Shown here one piece after another: positions 1,898 through 14,848 of a stretch of 64,000 bases of DNA. Every line of letters starts with the position of its first letter. The first letter of the stretch is position 1. The notes beneath the pieces are model-generated. The model searched no databases, was not told the origin of the DNA, and saw only the letters and a list, made by a program, of their open reading frames with translations. The position numbers and the translations under genes were made by a program. Origin of the DNA: Haladaptatus sp. QDMS2 (lineage in GTDB: Archaea; Halobacteriota; Halobacteria; Halobacteriales; Halococcaceae); the NCBI RefSeq assembly GCF_029338295.1, contig NZ_CP119791.1, positions 2,356,001 to 2,420,000 on the forward strand, written 5' to 3'.

Positions 1898-4084
1898 ATG
1901 GGCCGACGAAAGAAGATTGTCCAGGAATGTGAACGCCTGATGGACAAGCCGGAGCACATCCGGAACATGGCCATCGCGGCGCACATCGACCACGGCAAAA
2001 CAACCCTGACCGACAACCTGCTCGCTGGTGCAGGGATGATCTCCAAGGACCTCGCGGGCAAGCAGCTCGCGATGGACACCGGAGAGGACGAACAGGAACG
2101 TGGGATTACCATCGACGCGGCAAACGTTTCGATGACCCACGAGTGGGAAGACAAGAACCACCTCATCAACCTCATCGACACCCCAGGCCACGTCGACTTC
2201 GGTGGCGACGTGACCCGTGCGATGCGCGCAGTCGACGGTGCGCTCATCGTGGTCGACGCAGTCGAGGGAACGATGCCACAGACCGAGACAGTCGTCCGCC
2301 AGGCACTCCGCGAGGGTGTCAAACCGGCACTGTTCATCAACAAGGTCGACCGCCTCATCAACGAACTGCAGGAAGGCCCACAGGAGATGCAACAGCGTCT
2401 CCAGAAGGTCATCCGCGAGGTCAACGAACTCATCCGTGGGATGGCAGAGGAGAAATACGAGGAAGAAGGCTGGAAGGTCTCCGTCGAGAACGGGACCGTC
2501 GCCTTCGGGTCTGCCCTCTACAACTGGGCAGTCTCCCTCCCATCCATGCAGGAGACCGGCATCGACTTCGGTGACATCATCGACTACAACCAGAACGACA
2601 ACGTCGACGAGCTCAAAGAGCTCTCGCCGCTTTCGGACGTCGTGCTCGACATGGTCGCGGAGCACTTCCCGAACCCAGTCGAAGCACAGCCACGTCGTAT
2701 CCCGACCATCTGGCGCGGTGACCCAGAGAGCGAAATCGCGATTCAGATGCGCGACGTCGACGACGACGGCGAAGTCGTCTTCATGGTCACGGACATCTCC
2801 ATGGACCCACACGCAGGCGAAATCGCATCCGGTCGCCTGTTCTCCGGAACCATCGAGCGCGGTCAGGAGCTCTACGTCTCCGGGACTGCGGGCAAGAACC
2901 GCATCCAGTCCGTCGGCCTCTTCATGGGTGGCGAGCGCGAGGAAGTCGAGCGCGTCCCTGCGGGTAACATCGCAGCCGTGACCGGCCTCCGCGACGCCAT
3001 CGCTGGCTCCACCGTCTCCTCCGTGGAGATGACGCCGTTCGAGTCCATCGAACACATCAGCGAACCCGTCATCACGAAGTCCGTCGAGGCAAAGAGCATG
3101 GACGACCTGCCAAAGCTCATCGAGACGCTCCGTCAGGTCTCCAAAGAGGACCCCACCATCCAGATTACCATTAACGAGGACACCGGCGAGCACCTCATCA
3201 GTGGGCAGGGTGAGCTCCACCTCGAAGTCATCACGCAGCGTATCGAGCGCAACCAGGGCATCCCAGTCACGACTGGTGAGCCAATCGTCGTCTACCGCGA
3301 GAAGCCACGCAAGGCCTCCCAGACGGTCGAGGGCATCTCGCCAAACCGCCACAACCGCTTCTACGTGCGCGTAGAGCCACTCTCGGAAGAGATTGTGGAA
3401 CTCCTCAAGCTCGGCGAGGCATCCATGGACATGCCGGAACTCGAACGCCGCGAGGCGCTCATGGAAGCCGGAATGGACAAGGACACCGCCCAGAACGTCG
3501 AACACATCTACGGGACGAACATCCTCATCGACGACACGAAGGGTATCCAGCACCTGAACGAGACGATGGAACTCGTCATCGAGGGTCTCGAAGAGGCACT
3601 CGACGACGGCCCACTCGCGAAGGAGCCGGTCTCGGGCGCACTGTTCCGCCTCGAAGACGCGAAGCTCCACGAGGACGCCATCCACCGCGGTCCAGCACAG
3701 GTCATCCCGGCGACGCGTGACGCAATCCACCGGTCGCTCATCGCTGGCGAAGTCTCCCTGCTCGAACCGATTCAGAACGTCCGCATCGATGTTCCGACCG
3801 AGCACATGGGTGCGGCATCCGGCGAGATTCAGGGTCGCCGTGGCCGTGTCGACGACATGTACCAGGACGGCGACGTCATGGTCGTCGAAGGCGTCGCCCC
3901 AGTGCAGGAGATGATCGGATTCGCTTCCGACATCCGCTCCGCGACGGAAGGTCGCGCCTCCTGGAACACGGAGAACGCAGGCTTCCAGGACATGGCTGAC
4001 AACCTCCAGCCAGAGACCATCCGCGAAATCCGCGAGCGCAAGGGCATGAAGCTCGAACTGCCCGAGTCGATCAACTACTTCTAG
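1898..4084 (+). CDS. fusA: Translation elongation factor aEF-2
   Basis: A 728-residue GTPase that moves the tRNA-mRNA complex through the ribosome after peptide transfer. The P-loop AHIDHGKTT lies at residues 28-36, followed by DTPGHVDF (G3) and NKVD (G4), then the domain II to V regions of archaeal/eukaryotic EF-2. The diphthamide loop DAIHRGPAQ is intact, with His596 as the expected diphthamide residue. The ATG at 1898 (MGRRKKIV) matches the usual archaeal start and gives normal family length; an open frame runs 29 codons further upstream but looks untranslated. A hairpin and T-rich tract follow the stop. Confidence 0.98.
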
Positions 4085-8480: not shown

Positions 8481-8552
8481 GGGCTTGTAGATCAGCGGCA
8501 GATCGCTTCCTTCGCAAGGAAGAGGCCCCGGGTTCAAATCCCGGCAAGTCCA
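8481..8552 (+). tRNA. tRNA-Ala (anticodon CGC)
   Basis: The complete cloverleaf was read by hand. The 7-bp acceptor stem is GGGCTTG/CAAGTCC, D arm GATC/GATC (8490-8504), anticodon stem CTTCC/GGAAG with loop TTCGCAA and anticodon CGC at 8513-8515. The variable region has 5 bases, the T arm is CCGGG-TTCAAAT-CCCGG, and the discriminator is A at 8552. The acceptor has the G3:U70 wobble that marks tRNA-Ala. CCA is not encoded. Its 3' half (T arm and acceptor) is copied several times just downstream. Confidence 0.97.
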
Positions 8553-8987
8553 CTATTACTTTCGCGACACAACACGACTAGCCCAGCGAGTTGCTGTGTC
8601 GCGTAATCATCGTCCGACGAAGCCGGGATTTGAAGCCCTGTGAGTCTCGTTAGCAGAGCGAACGAGACGGCGGCAGAACGTGTTCTGCCGGGAGTCGCAG
8701 CATCCGAACGCAGTGAGGATGACCGTCTCACTCCGGGTTCAAATCTTGAAGCGGCGTTCGCCGCTTCAAAGTTCGCACCTCCGCAGGAGGTGCGCACTCC
8801 CGGCAAGTCCATTTCCTTCGTTTCACTCAGTCAATGGACTTGCCGTACCTCGCAAACGCTTCGCGTTTGCTCACTCCCCGGCAAGTCCAAATTACTTACT
8901 TTGCGACGCCAAATCGACGAGCGTAGCGGCCAGTAGTGGCCAATTGATTAAAGCAAGACACTGCAGTCTAACCCACATACTCGAGCG
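8553..8987. repeat. Mosaic of tRNA-Ala 3'-end fragments and perfect hairpins
   Basis: No protein gene is seen in these 435 bases. Copies of the tRNA-Ala 3' end (TCCCGGCAAGTCCA, 8539-8552 in the gene) recur at 8798-8811 and, with one change, at 8876-8889; CCGGGTTCAAATC recurs at 8733-8745. Inverted partial copies lie at about 8623-8637 and 8833-8845. Between them are perfect hairpins at 8671-8690, 8746-8769, 8774-8794 and 8852-8870. Sequence after the tRNA and after the last copy is similar (ATTACTTT...GCGAC), as if a segment of about 337 bp lies between direct repeats. Origin by repeated insertion at the tRNA end is inferred; no integrase remains. Confidence 0.8.
8801..8845. repeat. 13-bp perfect inverted repeat made from tRNA-Ala acceptor sequence
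   Basis: CGGCAAGTCCATT (8801-8813) and AATGGACTTGCCG (8833-8845) are exact reverse complements around a 19-base spacer. The left arm is the tRNA-Ala acceptor end plus ATT. Confidence 0.9.
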
Positions 8988-9728
8988 ATGGCACTCGTAA
9001 TGTTGGGTTTGGCGTTAGGGCTAGCCGCGGTACACATTTTCGCGAGAAAGCTACGGTTTTTCGATGGAGTCCCCCGCAGCTGGTGGCTCTCTGCTGCCGG
9101 CGGTGTCTCGGTTTCGTACGTCTTCGTCCATTTACTTCCAGAAATCGTCAAGCATCAAACGCGCGTGGAGAACGAGACGTTGGCCGCACTCGGCTTCGAG
9201 CAAGAACTGTTTCTCGTGGGGTTGCTCGGGTTCACCGTTTTTTATGGGCTCGAACGGTGGGCGAGACGAGCGCGCACGCAGGCTATAGAGCATACGATTC
9301 ATCGGAACGTCCACTCACGAACGCCACCTCGCGTGTTCTGGGTCCATATCGGCTCGTTCACCGTGTACAATCTGCTCATTGGCTACTTGCTCTTTCACCG
9401 CGAAGAAACCGGGTTCGTGAATCTCGTGCTGTATTTTATCGCAATGGCGCTTCACCTCGTCGTCAACGACGTTGGCCTCCGAGAACTCCACGAGCGGGCG
9501 TACGACCACATTGGGAAGTGGCTGGTTGCAACTGGCGTCATCGTCGGCGGCGTGATTGGAGCGCTCAGTGCGGTCCCCTCGATTCTCGTGAGTCTCTTGC
9601 TTGCATTTATAGCCGGCGGCGTCATCCTGAACGTGATTAAAGAAGAATTGCCGGACGAACGACAAAGCCGATTCTGGGCGTTCGCCGTCGGTGCTGGGCT
9701 CTATACTGCACTCATGATAGTGGTTTAA
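8988..9728 (+). CDS. ZIP-like multi-pass membrane protein
   Basis: A 246-residue membrane protein with about seven hydrophobic segments beginning at the N-terminus. HLLPE after the second segment, ALHLVVND in the middle, and a glycine-rich helix followed by IKEELPDE near the C-terminus resemble histidine- and glutamate-lined metal-site helices of the ZIP transporter superfamily. A role in divalent metal movement is inferred from these motifs and is not certain; it could be an uncharacterised relative. It starts at the ATG at 8988, just beyond the tRNA repeat mosaic, and has no obvious operon partner. Confidence 0.7.
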   Translation: MALVMLGLALGLAAVHIFARKLRFFDGVPRSWWLSAAGGVSVSYVFVHLLPEIVKHQTRVENETLAALGFEQELFLVGLLGFTVFYGLERWARRARTQAIEHTIHRNVHSRTPPRVFWVHIGSFTVYNLLIGYLLFHREETGFVNLVLYFIAMALHLVVNDVGLRELHERAYDHIGKWLVATGVIVGGVIGALSAVPSILVSLLLAFIAGGVILNVIKEELPDERQSRFWAFAVGAGLYTALMIVV

Positions 9729-10028
9729 AGGGGAGTATCGGATTCGAGATTCGCGCTGGTCGAGTTGTGCAGTGCAGTTATCTCCGCCCGGGACGAGATG
9801 TCGTACGTTTACTCGCGGTTACGATGGACAGAACGACGGTAAATATCAATTAACCACAAATAGCAATCGGGACGATTGTCAAAAGCAGAATCAGTGAGTT
9901 TCGACCCACATTATCCATGTTGCGTGAGGTTTCACACAACCGTCCAGAGTAATAGTCTGTTTATACTGACAGTTAGTGAATAGTTTTCTTCTCTAGTCGC
10001 GTAATTGCACTCTCAGGTGGTAAATACT
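9729..10028 (+). promoter_or_regulatory. Non-coding spacer with promoter for the membrane-protein pair
   Basis: These 300 bases hold no gene that I can support. TTTATA at about 9960-9965 is flanked by short inverted arms (CTGT...ACAG) and would start a leadered transcript near 9990. AGGTGG at 10015-10020 sits 8 bases before the ATG at 10029 and matches the 16S anti-Shine-Dalgarno partly. This separates the downstream pair from the ZIP-like gene. Confidence 0.4.
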
Positions 10029-10871
10029 ATGTCAGCAACAGAACCGTCCGCGATGGAGACTGAAACTTCGACCATGCAGGAAGTAAAGCGGGTCGCGTTT
10101 TACATTTCGGTGCTGGCGACGCTCGCTGCCTTCCTCATCACGACCGGGGAGCTGTTCTTGCTCCTCGGACTCGGGTTCGTCATCGGTGAGGAACTCGGCA
10201 TCCACCAACTACACGTGATGGGCATCGCAATTGGCGTGTTCTTCGCGTTCCTCGGCGTGCTGGTACAACTGTACAAGCCCATACGACGGGTCGCGTCGTT
10301 CCAGGCGGCCGCGATTCTCCTGCTCATCGCCGCCATCATCTTCACCGTGATTCCGAACGAGACGGCAGTCATCCTCTACCCGTTCGTCGGCGCGTTCATC
10401 CTGATGGGCATCCTGCACCCGGCGGGCACGAAGCTCCTCACGGTACGCAACCGGTACAGTCCGGCGGTCCTCGGACTGACGCTGCTCGCGGCGATTCCGC
10501 TGCTCGCGTTCGCTGTCGACCAGTTGACCCTGCAAATGTCCGGTGACGAACACGCGCTCATGGGCCACTACGGCATGATGGCGACGGTTAGCCTGACCAT
10601 CCTCGCCGCGGGCCTGCTTGTGTCGTTCCAGTCGATTGGCTACCGCCTGCTCGGCTGGCTTACCGCGTTCATGACGGCGTACTTCGGGGTGCTCTCAGTG
10701 GCGCTCCAGCCTCAGGCGTCGAACGTCGGCGTCCTCTGGGGCGCGCTCGCCATCGTCTGGGCGATCGCGCTCGTCGTCGCGACCGAAATGACCCTTCGCA
10801 ACCCGGAGTCGGCCTACTTCAACCGCATCCTGGGCGAGCGCGAGGAGACGGTCACGGGCAAGCCTGCCTGA
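10029..10871 (+). CDS. Multi-pass membrane protein, first of a tandem paralogous pair
   Basis: A 280-residue protein from the ATG at 10029 (MSATEPSAME), preferred over an upstream TTG because AGGTGG precedes it at good spacing. A short hydrophilic N-terminus is followed by about eight membrane helices. Conserved motifs shared with the next gene are EELGIHQLHV, LVQLYKP, LHPAG, RYSPAVLGLTL and DEHALMGHY. The C-terminus is a polar tail ending VTGKPA. The function is unrecognised; His- and Glu-containing motifs between helices could bind a ligand or metal. Confidence 0.8.
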   Translation: MSATEPSAMETETSTMQEVKRVAFYISVLATLAAFLITTGELFLLLGLGFVIGEELGIHQLHVMGIAIGVFFAFLGVLVQLYKPIRRVASFQAAAILLLIAAIIFTVIPNETAVILYPFVGAFILMGILHPAGTKLLTVRNRYSPAVLGLTLLAAIPLLAFAVDQLTLQMSGDEHALMGHYGMMATVSLTILAAGLLVSFQSIGYRLLGWLTAFMTAYFGVLSVALQPQASNVGVLWGALAIVWAIALVVATEMTLRNPESAYFNRILGEREETVTGKPA

Positions 10872-10967
10872 GCGACCCCTTTTGTCGTCGAAATAGCCCC
10901 TTATTAGCGACAATCGATTCATTATCATCTCCTCACCGTACGTCTGTACGCCTACAGAGTGATTTCC

Positions 10968-11801
10968 ATGGCAGTTACAGAATCGACATTCGACCAATCG
11001 ACGACCACGACGATGCACCGTGTAAAGCGCGTGGCGTTCTACCTCGTCGTCCTCGTGACGCTCGGCATCTTCGTATTCACCGCAGGCGAGTTGCTACCGT
11101 TCCTCGTTCTCGGGTTCACGATGGGTGCTGAACTCGGTATCCACCAGTTCCACGTGATTGCACTCGCGAGCTTCGTCGCGTTCGTCACCCTCGGCGTCCT
11201 CGTCCAGCTTTACAAGCCCGAGACGAGGGTCGCGACGTACCAAGCGACGTTCCTCGCCATGGCCATCTTGACAGCCCTCTCAGTCTTCACGGGTGACCTG
11301 TTCATCCTGCTGTACTTCGTTCCAGTTGTGCTGATCGGACTCCTGCACCCGGCAGGTCGCCGACTGCTCACAATTGGTGAACGATACAGCCCCGCCATCC
11401 TCGGCCTGACTCTCGTGACCGCAATCCCGCTGTTGGCCTACGCCGGAAACCAGTTCCAGCTGCAGGCAACCGGTGACGAACACGCGCTGTTCGGCCACTA
11501 CATGCCGATGGTCGCTATCGCACTCACGATACTCGCTGCGGGCCTGCTCGTGGCCTTCGAGTCCGTCGGCTTCCGGCTGCTTGCGTGGCTGACCGGCCTG
11601 TTCGCCGTGTACGTCGGATTCGCGTCCATCGTGCTCCCGACGCTCGCATCGAGTGCTGGCACGCTCTGGGGTGCGCTCGCAATCGTCTGGGCCGTCGCCT
11701 TCGTCGCGGCGACCGAACTGAGCGTGCGCGAGTCCGCCTCGTCGTACTTCAGCCGGGTGCGCACCACTCGCGAAGAGAGCGTTCCGGGGAAACCAGTTTG
11801 A
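10968..11801 (+). CDS. Multi-pass membrane protein, second of the tandem pair
   Basis: A 277-residue protein that is clearly a tandem duplicate of the preceding gene: same helix layout and motifs (AELGIHQFHV, LVQLYKPE, LHPAG, DEHALFGHY, and a similar terminus VPGKPV). The ATG at 10968 (MAVTESTFD) is preferred over a GTG three codons upstream. It lies 96 bases after the first copy, with an AT-rich CATTATC near 10920 that could be its own promoter. Function is unknown. It precedes the fructose operon, but no functional link is visible. Confidence 0.8.
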   Translation: MAVTESTFDQSTTTTMHRVKRVAFYLVVLVTLGIFVFTAGELLPFLVLGFTMGAELGIHQFHVIALASFVAFVTLGVLVQLYKPETRVATYQATFLAMAILTALSVFTGDLFILLYFVPVVLIGLLHPAGRRLLTIGERYSPAILGLTLVTAIPLLAYAGNQFQLQATGDEHALFGHYMPMVAIALTILAAGLLVAFESVGFRLLAWLTGLFAVYVGFASIVLPTLASSAGTLWGALAIVWAVAFVAATELSVRESASSYFSRVRTTREESVPGKPV

Positions 11802-11913: not shown

Positions 11914-12678
11914 ATGTTACCCGCAGAGCGAAAGCGAAAAATCGTCGAACTGGTCACCGCACGAGACGGGTGTGCCGTAGACGACCTCGCAACGGAACTC
12001 GATTTCTCGAAGGCGACGATTCGTCGCGACCTCCGTCAACTCGAAGACGACGGACTCATCGAACGCTCCCACGGCGGGGCAGTCCCGGTGACTGCCGTAG
12101 GGCGCGAACAGAGTTACGGCCAGCGCGACGTCCAGCGTCTCGAACAGAAAGCGGCCATCGCGGAGGTTGCAGTCGAGCAGATTCGCCCCGGACAGGTCGT
12201 CTTCTTCGACGCGGGGACGACGACGATGCAGGTCGGTAAACGCGCGCCAAAAGACGGATCGTTTCTCGCGGTAACGAATTCACCGCTGCTCGCGATGGAA
12301 CTTACGAGCGACGAGAACGAAGTGAAACTCACGGGTGGAACACTCCGCAGGCGGACTCGTGCACTCGTCGGCCCGAGTGCGACTGGGTTCATGGAACGCA
12401 TGAACTTCGACCTCCTGTTTCTCGGCACGAACGCCATCGACAGCGATGGAGGCCTGAGCACCCCGAACGAGGACGAGGCCCTGGTCAAAGAGGTCATGAT
12501 CGAGCGGGCAGCACGCGTCGTCCTCGTCGCAGATGGGTCGAAAGTCGGAAAGCGGAGCTTCATCGAGTTCGCAGACCTGGAAGGCGTGGACGTGTTCATC
12601 ACCGACCGGTCGCTCACCCGGGCGGAGCAAGAAACGTTCGACGCAGCAGACGTCGCGGTCCTGGAGACTCCCGAATGA
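11914..12678 (+). CDS. glpR: DeoR/GlpR-family transcriptional regulator of sugar metabolism
   Basis: A 254-residue cytoplasmic regulator. The N-terminal DeoR winged HTH (residues 1-55) contains FSKATIRRDLRQLE and ERSHGGAVPV. It is followed by the DeoRC ligand domain with FFDAGTTT near residue 92 and VLVADGSKVGKRSF. In Haloferax the corresponding GlpR represses fructose and glucose catabolic genes, including 1-phosphofructokinase. Here the stop overlaps the kinase start by 4 bases, so both are cotranscribed and the regulator probably senses a phosphorylated sugar. Repression of the whole cluster is inferred. Confidence 0.9.
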   Translation: MLPAERKRKIVELVTARDGCAVDDLATELDFSKATIRRDLRQLEDDGLIERSHGGAVPVTAVGREQSYGQRDVQRLEQKAAIAEVAVEQIRPGQVVFFDAGTTTMQVGKRAPKDGSFLAVTNSPLLAMELTSDENEVKLTGGTLRRRTRALVGPSATGFMERMNFDLLFLGTNAIDSDGGLSTPNEDEALVKEVMIERAARVVLVADGSKVGKRSFIEFADLEGVDVFITDRSLTRAEQETFDAADVAVLETPE

Positions 12679-13586
12679 TTCTCACTGTCACGCTGAACCC
12701 CGCGGTAGACCACACGCTCACCCTCGACCAACCACTCACCCACGGCGCGGTCGCCCGGACCGACGACGCCCAGTACGACGCCGGTGGGAAGGGCATCAAC
12801 GTTTCGAAGTACCTGACCAAGCGGGACGTCGAGACGTATGCGACGGGCCTCATCGGCGGTTTTCTCGGCGAGTTCATCGAGACGCGTCTGGACGAGACGG
12901 GCGTGCATGCGGATTTCGTCGAAATCGCGGGTCGCACGCGGTTGAACACGACACTGCACGCGCCGGATGGCGAGTTCAAGATAAATCAACACGGACCGAC
13001 CGTCGGTCTTGATGCAATCGACCGAATCGTCGAACGCGCCCACGAACACGACCCGGATTCGGTGGTCGTGGCGGGAAGTCTCCCCAAGGGACTCGACGCG
13101 TCTGGCGTAGACCGCATCGCGAGGGCTGGGCCGTGGGAGACCGTCGTCGACGTGGGTGGCGACTTACTCACCGAACTCGACGCGGAGTTCGCACTCTGTA
13201 AACCGAATCGAGAAGAACTCTCGGCGGCGACCGGACTTCCGACGGAGACGCTCGACGAGTGTATCGCGGCGGGAAAAGCGCTACAGCGGCGAGGATACGA
13301 CCGCGTCGCGGCGTCGCTTGGCGGAGACGGTGCGTTGCTCGTCACTCCAGAAACCGTGTTCCACGCGACTGCGCTCGACGTGCGCGTCGTGGATACGGTC
13401 GGTGCAGGAGACGCATTCCTCGCTGGATTACTCTCCGCGTACGCACGCGGGACCGGTGACGAAGGAGCGCTGAAAGAGGGCGTCGCAGTCGCCTCAGAAG
13501 TGGTCACGACGCCCGGCACCACAGTACCGATACTGTCAAACGTACAACTGAACACCGGTCGTGTGACTGTTTCTGTTTGCCAGTGA
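12675..13586 (+). CDS. pfkB: 1-phosphofructokinase (PfkB family)
   Basis: A 303-residue ribokinase-fold enzyme that phosphorylates fructose 1-phosphate, the PTS product, to fructose 1,6-bisphosphate. Motifs are NPAVDHTL at the N-terminus, GGKGINVSKYL (about 38-48), and the C-terminal anion-hole signature DTVGAGDAF with catalytic Asp246. Position between GlpR and the fructose PTS makes the 1-phosphate substrate more likely than fructose 6-phosphate or 2-keto-3-deoxygluconate. It overlaps glpR by ATGA. Confidence 0.92.
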   Translation: MILTVTLNPAVDHTLTLDQPLTHGAVARTDDAQYDAGGKGINVSKYLTKRDVETYATGLIGGFLGEFIETRLDETGVHADFVEIAGRTRLNTTLHAPDGEFKINQHGPTVGLDAIDRIVERAHEHDPDSVVVAGSLPKGLDASGVDRIARAGPWETVVDVGGDLLTELDAEFALCKPNREELSAATGLPTETLDECIAAGKALQRRGYDRVAASLGGDGALLVTPETVFHATALDVRVVDTVGAGDAFLAGLLSAYARGTGDEGALKEGVAVASEVVTTPGTTVPILSNVQLNTGRVTVSVCQ

Positions 13587-13723
13587 TTACGAGTTTTCAG
13601 CGCGTTATCCGTTGGTTTCGAAGAGATTGTGAAAATCGGTAGGAAAATTTTGACAATATCTTGTGCAGAAACAATCAAATCCGAAACATCTTTTGAACAC
13701 TCTCTCTAGGTTCTGGGCAGACC
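13587..13723 (+). promoter_or_regulatory. Intra-cluster spacer with a second promoter for the PTS genes
   Basis: This 137-bp gap is longer than any other in the cluster and is AT-rich. TTTTGAAC at 13691-13698 lies about 30 bases before the IIC start. Upstream, ATTTTGACAATATCTTGTGC (near 13645) holds an imperfect dyad, TTGACAA/TTGTGC. It suggests that the PTS genes can be expressed separately from glpR-pfkB. Confidence 0.4.
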
Positions 13724-14848
13724 ATGTCATCTAGCGATTCGGCAGAAACGGCACTTCGAGCACACGTTACCTCCGTAAAGGAGAACCTGATGACCGGGGT
13801 TTCGTTCATGATTCCGTTCGTCACCATCGGCGGTATCTTCCTCGCGCTCGGTTTCGCCGTCGGCGATACCAGGACTGTGCTCGACAACACTGGCTCACTC
13901 GGCTGGTTCCTCGCACAGATTGGTTCGGCGGGTCTCACGCTCATGGTGCCGGTTCTCGGTGCGTACATCGCGTACGCAATCGCGGATCGTCCGGCGCTCG
14001 CACCCGGATTCGTCCTCTCGTATTTGCTCCAGCAGGGAACGATCGTCACTGAGGCGGGCAAGTTCATCGGTCTCGACGCCGGCGGCCTCGGCGCGGGATA
14101 CCTCGGTGCCCTCGTCGCCGGACTGCTCACCGGATACGTCGCTCGCTTTTTCAAGAACCTGAACGTCCCGCGCGTCCTCGCCCCGATGATGCCGGTGCTC
14201 ATCATCCCTGTCCTCACGACAGCGGTGCTCGCCCCTGTCGTCCTCTTCGGGATTGGCGCACCGGTCGCCATCGCAAACGAGTCTCTCAACACCTTCCTCA
14301 AGAGTTTACAGGGAGGACAGGCGGTCGTCATCGGCCTCATCCTCGGCGGGATGATGGCTTTCGACATGGGCGGCCCCGTAAACAAAGTCGCCTACCTGTT
14401 CTCGGTCGGCCTCATCAGCGAGCAGGTGTATGCACCCATGGCCGCCGTCATGATCGCTGGCATGACACCGCCAATCGGCATGGCGATTTCGAACTACATC
14501 TCTCCAGAGAGGTACGCATCAGAGATGAAGGAAAACGCGAAAAACGGCTTTCTGATGGGCTTTTCGTTCATCACGGAAGGAGCGATTCCCTACGCCGCGG
14601 CCGACCCGCTTCGAGTCATCCCCGCACTCGTGGCTGGGAGCGCTGTCGCGGGTGGCGCTTCGATGTCGCTCGGCGTCACGATGCCCGCCCCGCACGGTGG
14701 CATGTTCGTCGTGTTCCTCTCGAATCAACCGCTCCTGTTCATCGGCTGTGTCCTGCTCGGGTCGCTCGTGACCGCGGGCGTGGCAACCGGCCTCAAGTCA
14801 GCTGTTGGCGAGACTGTCACAGGAACTACGTCGCAAACGTCCGATTGA
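13724..14848 (+). CDS. ptfC: PTS fructose-specific EIIC membrane permease
   Basis: A 374-residue integral membrane protein with about nine helices that moves fructose across the membrane while IIB phosphorylates it. FMIPFVTIGG, GMMAFDMGGPVNK and the segment FITEGAIPYAAADP, which carries the conserved Glu-Gly sugar-binding loop, identify the fructose IIC family. The domain stands alone rather than fused to IIB as in many bacteria. The gene begins the IIC-IIA-HPr-EI-IIB run. Bacterial ancestry of this system in haloarchaea is established for relatives. Confidence 0.95.
   Translation: MSSSDSAETALRAHVTSVKENLMTGVSFMIPFVTIGGIFLALGFAVGDTRTVLDNTGSLGWFLAQIGSAGLTLMVPVLGAYIAYAIADRPALAPGFVLSYLLQQGTIVTEAGKFIGLDAGGLGAGYLGALVAGLLTGYVARFFKNLNVPRVLAPMMPVLIIPVLTTAVLAPVVLFGIGAPVAIANESLNTFLKSLQGGQAVVIGLILGGMMAFDMGGPVNKVAYLFSVGLISEQVYAPMAAVMIAGMTPPIGMAISNYISPERYASEMKENAKNGFLMGFSFITEGAIPYAAADPLRVIPALVAGSAVAGGASMSLGVTMPAPHGGMFVVFLSNQPLLFIGCVLLGSLVTAGVATGLKSAVGETVTGTTSQTSD

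What the first reader, a model, noticed from the sequence alone, without database searches (positions are those of the whole stretch)
8528..8925. tRNA-Ala 3'-end fragments scattered in both orientations, interleaved with perfect hairpins
The 13-base T-arm piece CCGGGTTCAAATC of the tRNA (8528-8540) recurs at 8733-8745, and the following TCCCGGCAAGTCCA recurs at 8798-8811. Exactly 52 bases carrying two perfect hairpins (8746-8769, 8774-8794) separate the two halves. A further acceptor copy at 8876-8889 follows another perfect hairpin (8852-8870). Inverted pieces occur at 8623-8637 and 8833-8845. This looks like hairpin elements inserted repeatedly into copies of one tRNA end, not like a simple att site. 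It could be a small tRNA-derived mobile element or the decayed record of several integrations.
Basis: partly seen in the sequence, partly recalled or inferred. Interest (0 to 1): 0.7.

Follow-up and report, generated by a model that had tools for sequence, protein, structure and literature searches.

The report
tRNA-tail-copying hairpin repeats in haloarchaea
Behind this tRNA gene, and behind about half of the tRNA genes in this salt-loving archaeon, sit short hairpin-forming DNA units that each end in a copy of the tail of whichever tRNA they follow; the family is widespread in haloarchaea, I found no published description of it, and it looks like a gene-less mobile element that uses tRNA ends as landing sites.

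Summary
The fragments and hairpins are real and far beyond chance. They are one example of a repeat family found across Halobacteria. A unit is about 100-130 nt: a hairpin (H1) after the tRNA; an inverted copy (I) of the T-arm start (nt 52-62); a conserved core AGTCGCAG-hairpin-GACCGTCT; and a direct copy (D) of the tRNA's last 22 nt (nt 52-73). Units stand alone or in tandem. I and D match the local tRNA (18 amino acids seen), while the core is shared. In the window's own genome 22 of 44 tRNA genes carry own-tail copies within 600 nt downstream (1 upstream); in a second genome 28 of 42. The strict core pattern occurs in 98 of 293 genomes of the order, with 0 control hits. Stems co-vary (98-99% paired, 46-48% when shuffled). 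A second module (B) splits D copies between T-arm and acceptor, which explains the 52-base split. Congeners differ by presence and absence of units. Best reading: a non-coding hairpin element that inserts at tRNA 3' ends and duplicates the landing site, probably moved in trans by a tRNA-directed recombinase. Insertion is inferred, the enzyme is unidentified, and an RNA role is not excluded.

The parts
8481..8552 (+). tRNA-Ala(CGC), the host tRNA; nt 52-73 = 8531-8552 are the copied segment (D1)
   Evidence: ARAGORN, Rfam RF00005; copied segment defined over 160 copies
8553..8607 (+). H1: hairpin directly after the tRNA (arms 8560-8574 / 8592-8606)
   Evidence: counterpart hairpin of at least 6 pairs in 77 of 109 units
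8626..8636 (+). I: inverted copy of the T-arm start (GGATTTGAAGC), 5' arm of the main hairpin
8647..8696 (+). Two extra hairpins inside the core, bounded by GAGTC repeats (8642-8646, 8692-8696)
   Evidence: read from sequence against the core consensus; also in congener G002
8693..8728 (+). Conserved core AGTCGCAG - tip hairpin (8701-8721) - GACCGTCT
8736..8745 (+). D2, first part: T-arm copy GGTTCAAATC, 3' arm of the main hairpin
8746..8797 (+). B module (two hairpins, 52 nt) splitting the D2 copy
   Evidence: inserts of 51-58 nt at the same point in other loci
8798..8811 (+). D2, second part: acceptor copy
8812..8889 (+). Complete B unit (78 nt): loop, inverted acceptor 8833-8845, hairpin 8852-8870, direct acceptor copy 8876-8889
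   Evidence: absent at the orthologous place in G002
8890..8945 (+). H1-like remnant after the last copy
   Evidence: 8877-8928 is similar (81%) to a tRNA end plus H1 of congener G001; extent by eye

Best explanation
A haloarchaea-wide family of small, protein-less, hairpin-forming repeat units occupies the 3' ends of tRNA genes. A unit is H1 hairpin - linker - I - core - D, where D is a copy of the tRNA's last 22 nt and I is the inverse of D's first 11 nt, so that I-core-D folds into one long imperfect hairpin. Most likely a unit is gained as a DNA insertion at the tRNA 3' end that duplicates the landing segment, so the tRNA stays intact and further insertions can land on the tRNA or on a D copy, which builds tandem arrays. 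B modules do the same with the last 13-15 nt. Shown: anatomy, match of both arms to the host tRNA, tandem arrays, presence and absence between congeners, similar cores behind different tRNAs, conservation of the folded structure. Inferred: the direction (insertion rather than loss), target duplication as the source of D, movement in trans by a tRNA-directed (probably tyrosine) recombinase, and recognition of the folded hairpin.
For: Copies lie downstream, not upstream: 22 of 44 and 28 of 42 tRNAs against 1 and 1. D copies have sharp boundaries at nt 52/53 and 73 (94-100% inside, 26% one base upstream). The acceptor half of D equals the own tRNA in 91 of 141 units, against 7 of about 2,600 comparisons with other tRNA species. 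Nearest core lies behind another isoacceptor for 100 of 141 units, and one 39-nt core is identical behind tRNA-Ser and tRNA-Asp in two genera. Units are present or absent at the same tRNA in congeners, and two tRNA-Ala loci of G002 share 140 nt at 96%. Copy number and module order vary in Halorubrum. Folded structure maintained. Copy sizes of 22 and about 14 nt match haloarchaeal att cores (PMC3119063; PMC8371274). Tyrosine integrases present in all four genomes tested.
Against: No insertion event was observed; one genome per species was available, and gain was not polarised against loss. Plain target duplication explains D but not why I also matches the local tRNA. Gene conversion between the tRNA and D could also keep them alike. 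No recombinase was found linked to the units. Orthologous units persist in Halorubrum with paired changes, which suggests a maintained function rather than only selfish spread.
Confidence: 0.55

Rival explanations
1. The unit works as RNA: a structured trailer or small RNA co-transcribed with the tRNA, affecting termination, processing or stability, whose tail mimics the tRNA (compare the tyrT/RtT repeats of E. coli). Both arms follow the tRNA because they must pair with each other or with it.
For: Always downstream on the tRNA strand. Strong covariation. I-arm changes that leave a G.T pair on the tRNA strand outnumber those that leave A.C, 47 to 10, counted from the table; base composition may contribute. 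Paired changes between orthologous units.
Against: Many tRNAs, even in the same genome, have no copy, so it is not generally required. Variable-stem wobble pairs are rarer than mismatches (1 versus 5 of 274). No Rfam family matches. It does not by itself explain the sharp 22-nt copy or the presence-absence pattern.
Confidence: 0.2
2. No dedicated mover: tandem duplication, gene conversion and template switching at palindromes create and homogenise the pieces. Direct copies expand by slippage, and imperfect hairpins are corrected by template switching.
For: Template switching is known to homogenise inverted-repeat arms (PMC7202029, PMC8604942, abstracts) and would keep I in step with D. Tandem arrays are common. 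The G002 Ala loci could be gene conversion.
Against: Does not explain a conserved core behind tRNAs of 17 amino acids in many genera, the fixed copy boundaries, or the near absence of the core away from tRNA ends.
Confidence: 0.15
3. Ordinary remnants of integrated viruses and plasmids: repeated integration at the tRNA with loss of the middle, as the first reader suggested as one option.
For: A 22-nt tRNA-Ala duplication marks one Haloquadratum prophage and a 43-nt tRNA-His duplication another island (PMC3119063). Archaeal integrases favour tRNA 3' ends (PMC8371274). Partial tRNA copies with units behind them occur (L183, L225, L229), and L038 has an integrase-like frame upstream (read).
Against: D-to-D distances are short (median 144 nt) with a conserved core and covarying stems. 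In L183, L225 and L229 the unit lies beyond the partial tRNA copy, as if it was there before the integration.
Confidence: 0.06

Closest known systems
Attachment sites of tRNA-directed archaeal tyrosine integrases (SNJ2, Haloquadratum prophages)
   Same: Copy of a tRNA 3' end as direct repeat, intact tRNA kept; sizes of 14 nt (SNJ2) and 22 nt match the B and D copies
   Different: The repeats here enclose about 100 nt of conserved hairpins and no gene, occur at about half of the tRNAs of a genome, and include inverted copies
Integron cassette arrays and attC sites
   Same: Tandem modules; imperfect hairpin with inverted ends (..GAAC / GTTC..), internal loops, conserved mismatch and variable tip (PMC2727003)
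   Different: No cassette genes, no IntI over the cut-off, landing site is a tRNA, arms match the local tRNA; recombination not shown
Casposons
   Same: Insertion at tRNA 3' ends with target duplication (PMC6977970)
   Different: Casposons carry genes and terminal inverted repeats; their 14-bp duplication includes only the last 4 bp of the tRNA; no Cas1 in the own genome or its two congeners
REP elements and haloarchaeal MITEs, PATEs and SMRs
   Same: Short, numerous, gene-less, palindromic (PMC3733652; PMC3119063)
   Different: Those are dispersed; the core here is almost confined to tRNA 3' ends and its arms copy the tRNA
tyrT repeats / RtT RNA of Escherichia coli (own knowledge; no paper found)
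   Same: Tandem repeats behind a tRNA gene, each with a copy of the tRNA 3' end
   Different: One locus, no conserved core shared among tRNAs; no RtT match in the window region

Membership tests
Tyrosine-integrase att site pair | tRNA 3' end as direct repeat with the tRNA kept whole | tested here: met
Tyrosine-integrase att site pair | Mobile element with an integrase gene between the repeats | tested here: not met
Integron cassette array | Imperfect foldable hairpin with AAC...GTT ends and variable tip | tested here: inconclusive
   Layout similar, but the R-box consensus is only partly matched and 35 of 141 have G at the position before the last C of I
Integron cassette array | Integron integrase IntI | tested here: not met
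   No match over the cut-off in 5 unit-bearing genomes
Integron cassette array | Recombination of a folded single strand | not testable with these tools
   Needs an assay
Casposon | Cas1-type casposase in the genome | tested here: not met
   No Cas1 in G000, G001, G002
Casposon | Terminal inverted repeats and about 14-bp target duplication | tested here: not met
   Main copy is 22 nt within the tRNA; I and D are not ends of the inserted segment
REP / RAYT system | Palindrome dispersed between genes | tested here: not met
   87 of 88 haloarchaeal stretches tied to a tRNA end
REP / RAYT system | RAYT transposase and GTAG tag | not tested
   No search made for RAYT genes; the consensus core shows CGTC, not GTAG
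RtT RNA | Match to the Rfam family | tested here: not met
   Not among matches up to E = 1
RtT RNA | Transcript released from the repeats | not testable with these tools
   No expression data

The most novel reading that the evidence does not exclude
An archaeal, gene-less counterpart of integron or CRISPR-type arrays: folded single-strand DNA hairpins are captured at tRNA T-arms by a tRNA-directed recombinase, each capture rewriting both arms from the target tRNA so that any tRNA can serve as landing site, and arrays grow from the tRNA end.
Probability: 0.2. Interest if true: 0.93.

Novelty: categorically new. Interest (0 to 1): 0.82.

Why it matters
Half of the tRNA genes of a genome being followed by structured units that copy the tail of whichever tRNA they follow is a genome-wide trait of a well-studied archaeal class, and I found no description of it in the papers searched. 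If the units are mobile, they are gene-less elements that can use essential genes as targets by restoring them, at almost any tRNA. If they act as RNA, they are a new kind of tRNA trailer. Either way they complicate tRNA annotation and att-site detection, because D copies look like prophage attR sites. The question is directly testable in culturable haloarchaea. 'Categorically new' rests on the arms matching the local tRNA in both orientations; if the units prove to be att remnants or RtT-like RNAs the rating falls to a new variant of a known kind.

Tried and rejected
Decayed integrations as main reading: disfavoured (short fixed unit, conserved core, units beyond partial tRNA copies). Retro-copy of mature tRNA (SINE-like): the common continuations of the copies are not CCA. 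Coding explanation: open frames overlap 8534-8936, but unit lengths vary without regard to frame. Cas1 as resident enzyme: none in the own genome. Integron proper: no IntI. Known RNA family: none besides the tRNA itself reached its gathering score. Viruses: six viral-contig matches, none closer than 900 nt behind a tRNA. RNA versus DNA from pair types: not decisive; H1 stems have about 4% G.T, whole-unit RNA folds 2.9% on the tRNA strand and 8.1% on the other. T-runs do not separate tRNAs with units (30 of 109) from tRNAs without (19 of 104). Literature searches found nothing on such repeats; the library lacks most subscription journals.

Full report
WHAT IS IN THE WINDOW. tRNA-Ala(CGC) at 8481-8552 stands behind genes for elongation factor 1-alpha and ribosomal protein S10. 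The 340 nt after it consist largely of hairpins and pieces of the tRNA's tail and fold far better than shuffled sequence (z -9.0 as RNA, -9.6 as DNA).

HOW THE PIECES FIT. Comparison with other loci shows an ordered unit: hairpin H1 directly after the tRNA (8553-8607); a linker; I, the inverse of the T-arm start (8626-8636); a core AGTCGCAG - hairpin - GACCGTCT (8693-8728); and D, a copy of tRNA nt 52-73 (from 8736). In the window the core carries two extra hairpins between GAGTC repeats (8647-8696). The D copy is split after ten bases by a 52-nt B module (8746-8797) and resumes at 8798. A complete B unit of 78 nt follows (8812-8889) with an inverted and a direct acceptor copy. Of 35 interrupted copies elsewhere, 20 have their acceptor half within 200 nt, and inserts of 51-58 nt are the commonest long ones.

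THE FAMILY. A search of 60 relatives with the region hit other tRNA-Ala loci and, unexpectedly, B-type sequence next to tRNA ends of other genera. The strict pattern GGRTTYGAANCCN{2,8}AGTCGCAG occurs in 98 of 293 genomes of the order (42 of 87 genera) and never in the reversed control. In 29 of 30 loci inspected it lies behind a tRNA on the same strand, within about 200 nt. Of the 88, 79 lie behind a tRNA found by ARAGORN. I tied eight more to a tRNA end by eye: two behind a tRNA cut by the locus edge (L180, L279), five behind a partial tRNA copy (clear in L183, L225, L229; only an acceptor-like piece in L192 and L214) and one inside tRNA-Asp (L241). The last, L281, looks coding. None of the 32 bacterial matches lies behind a tRNA.

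GENOME-WIDE SURVEY. Taking every tRNA of two genomes, an own-tail copy of at least 12 nt lies within 600 nt downstream for 22 of 44 (own genome) and 28 of 42 (G142). Upstream it is 1 and 1, and with foreign tRNA ends the mean is 3.6 and 5.7. The own genome often uses a second core type (CAGGGAGC - tip - GCGACCG), so the strict pattern undercounts.

THE ARMS FOLLOW THE LOCAL tRNA, THE CORE DOES NOT. In 141 distinct units behind tRNAs of 17 amino acids, the acceptor half of D is identical to the own tRNA in 91, against 7 of about 2,600 comparisons with other tRNA species; 35 of the rest are split or shifted copies. Glutamine tRNAs add an eighteenth amino acid. Over 160 copies the match is 94-100% for nt 52-73 and drops to 26% one base upstream; this set was chosen for similarity over those 22 nt, so the informative part is the sharp edge. 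I mirrors local T-arm variants: C opposite G57 in 42 of 42, T opposite A57 in 93 of 99, and the unusual T-arms of Gly, Asn, Tyr and Pro tRNAs in G142 are each largely mirrored. Units were admitted with at most 3 mismatches in I and in the first half of D, which inflates those matches but not the acceptor half. The core's nearest relative sits behind a different isoacceptor for 100 of 141 units (same isoacceptor 41, about 8 expected), so cores are partly inherited in place and partly spread among tRNAs. One 39-nt core is identical behind tRNA-Ser and tRNA-Asp in two genera; it is short and of a common type, so this is supportive, not proof.

STRUCTURE IS MAINTAINED. The two innermost pairs of the variable stem are paired in 98-99% of units against 46-48% after shuffling, using A-T, G-C and C-G freely; the T.T mismatch between fixed pairs was part of the selection pattern on one side and invariant on the other. 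Related units share ancestry, so shuffles overstate significance, but paired changes also appear between orthologous units of Halorubrum tRNA-Ser(TGA). The folded strand therefore seems to matter, as RNA or as single-stranded DNA. In the variable stem wobble pairs are rarer than mismatches (1 versus 5 of 274) and GNA triloops are common, which leans to DNA; the I arm leans the other way and H1 stems show about 4% G.T, so this is not settled.

GAIN AND LOSS. Among three congeners tRNA-Ala(CGC) has units in G000 and G002 but not G001, and tRNA-Ala(GGC) in G001 and G002 but not G000; the 78-nt B unit at 8812-8889 is absent from that place in G002. In G002 the two tRNA-Ala loci share 140 nt at 96%, while G000 and G002 share about 90% at the same locus, so sequence has moved between loci within G002, by transposition or gene conversion. 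In Halorubrum, copy number behind tRNA-Leu(TAA) varies from 1 to 3, and similar blocks occur in different order behind tRNA-Gly(TCC). In L183, L225 and L229 the unit lies beyond a partial tRNA copy, as expected if a larger element integrated later.

MECHANISM. The simplest account of D is a landing-site duplication at the tRNA 3' end: the copy equals the target, the tRNA stays whole, and each copy is a new landing site. Copy sizes of 22 and about 14 nt match two att-core sizes known from haloarchaea: 22 nt in a Haloquadratum prophage (PMC3119063) and 14 nt for SNJ2 (PMC8371274). That points to tyrosine integrases acting in trans; ten integrase matches exist in the own genome. The I-core-D fold resembles an integron attC site (PMC2727003) in layout, not in enzyme: no IntI over the cut-off. 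Casposons also insert at tRNA 3' ends, but with a 14-bp duplication that includes only 4 bp of the tRNA (PMC6977970), and no Cas1 is present in the own genome. Target duplication alone does not explain why I matches too; either the insertion copies the target twice, or selection or template-switch correction keeps I in step. This is the weakest point of the explanation.

LIMITS. The two surveyed genomes were not random: G142 was chosen for its many core matches.

VERDICT. Observation confirmed and enlarged: a haloarchaeal family of tRNA-tail-copying hairpin units, apparently undescribed. Anatomy and distribution are firm; insertion by target duplication is likely; the enzyme and any host function are open.

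Noticed in passing
L241 (MAG QS_4_69_31), reverse strand about 280-430: A unit sits inside a tRNA-Asp gene, between ..CGCGGG and GGTTCAAATCC.., which would interrupt the tRNA. Could be a deletion product or an assembly fault; not checked for a second, intact tRNA-Asp.
   Followed up: no
L183 about 3700-3960, L225, L229: Units behind partial tRNA copies that look like attR sites of larger integrated elements.
   Followed up: partly
L064, L066, L120, L273 (D copies): A recurrent variant of the copied T-loop, GGTTCACAATCC, with one extra base; its meaning is unknown.
   Followed up: no
window 8642-8696: A stretch with two perfect hairpins inside the core, bounded by GAGTC direct repeats, shared with G002: hairpins within hairpins.
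   Followed up: partly
L048, reverse strand behind tRNA-Asn; also L085: After the D copy a run of perfect hairpins is separated by short GACGGCG / ACGGCCCG spacers that resemble pieces of the tRNA end.
   Followed up: no
window 8988-11801: Three predicted membrane-protein-like frames (8988-9728, 10005-10871, 10959-11801) without any Pfam match, the last two alike.
   Followed up: no
window 11914-14848: DeoR-type regulator, pfkB-type sugar kinase and PTS EIIC genes in a row: probably a fructose uptake operon.
   Followed up: no
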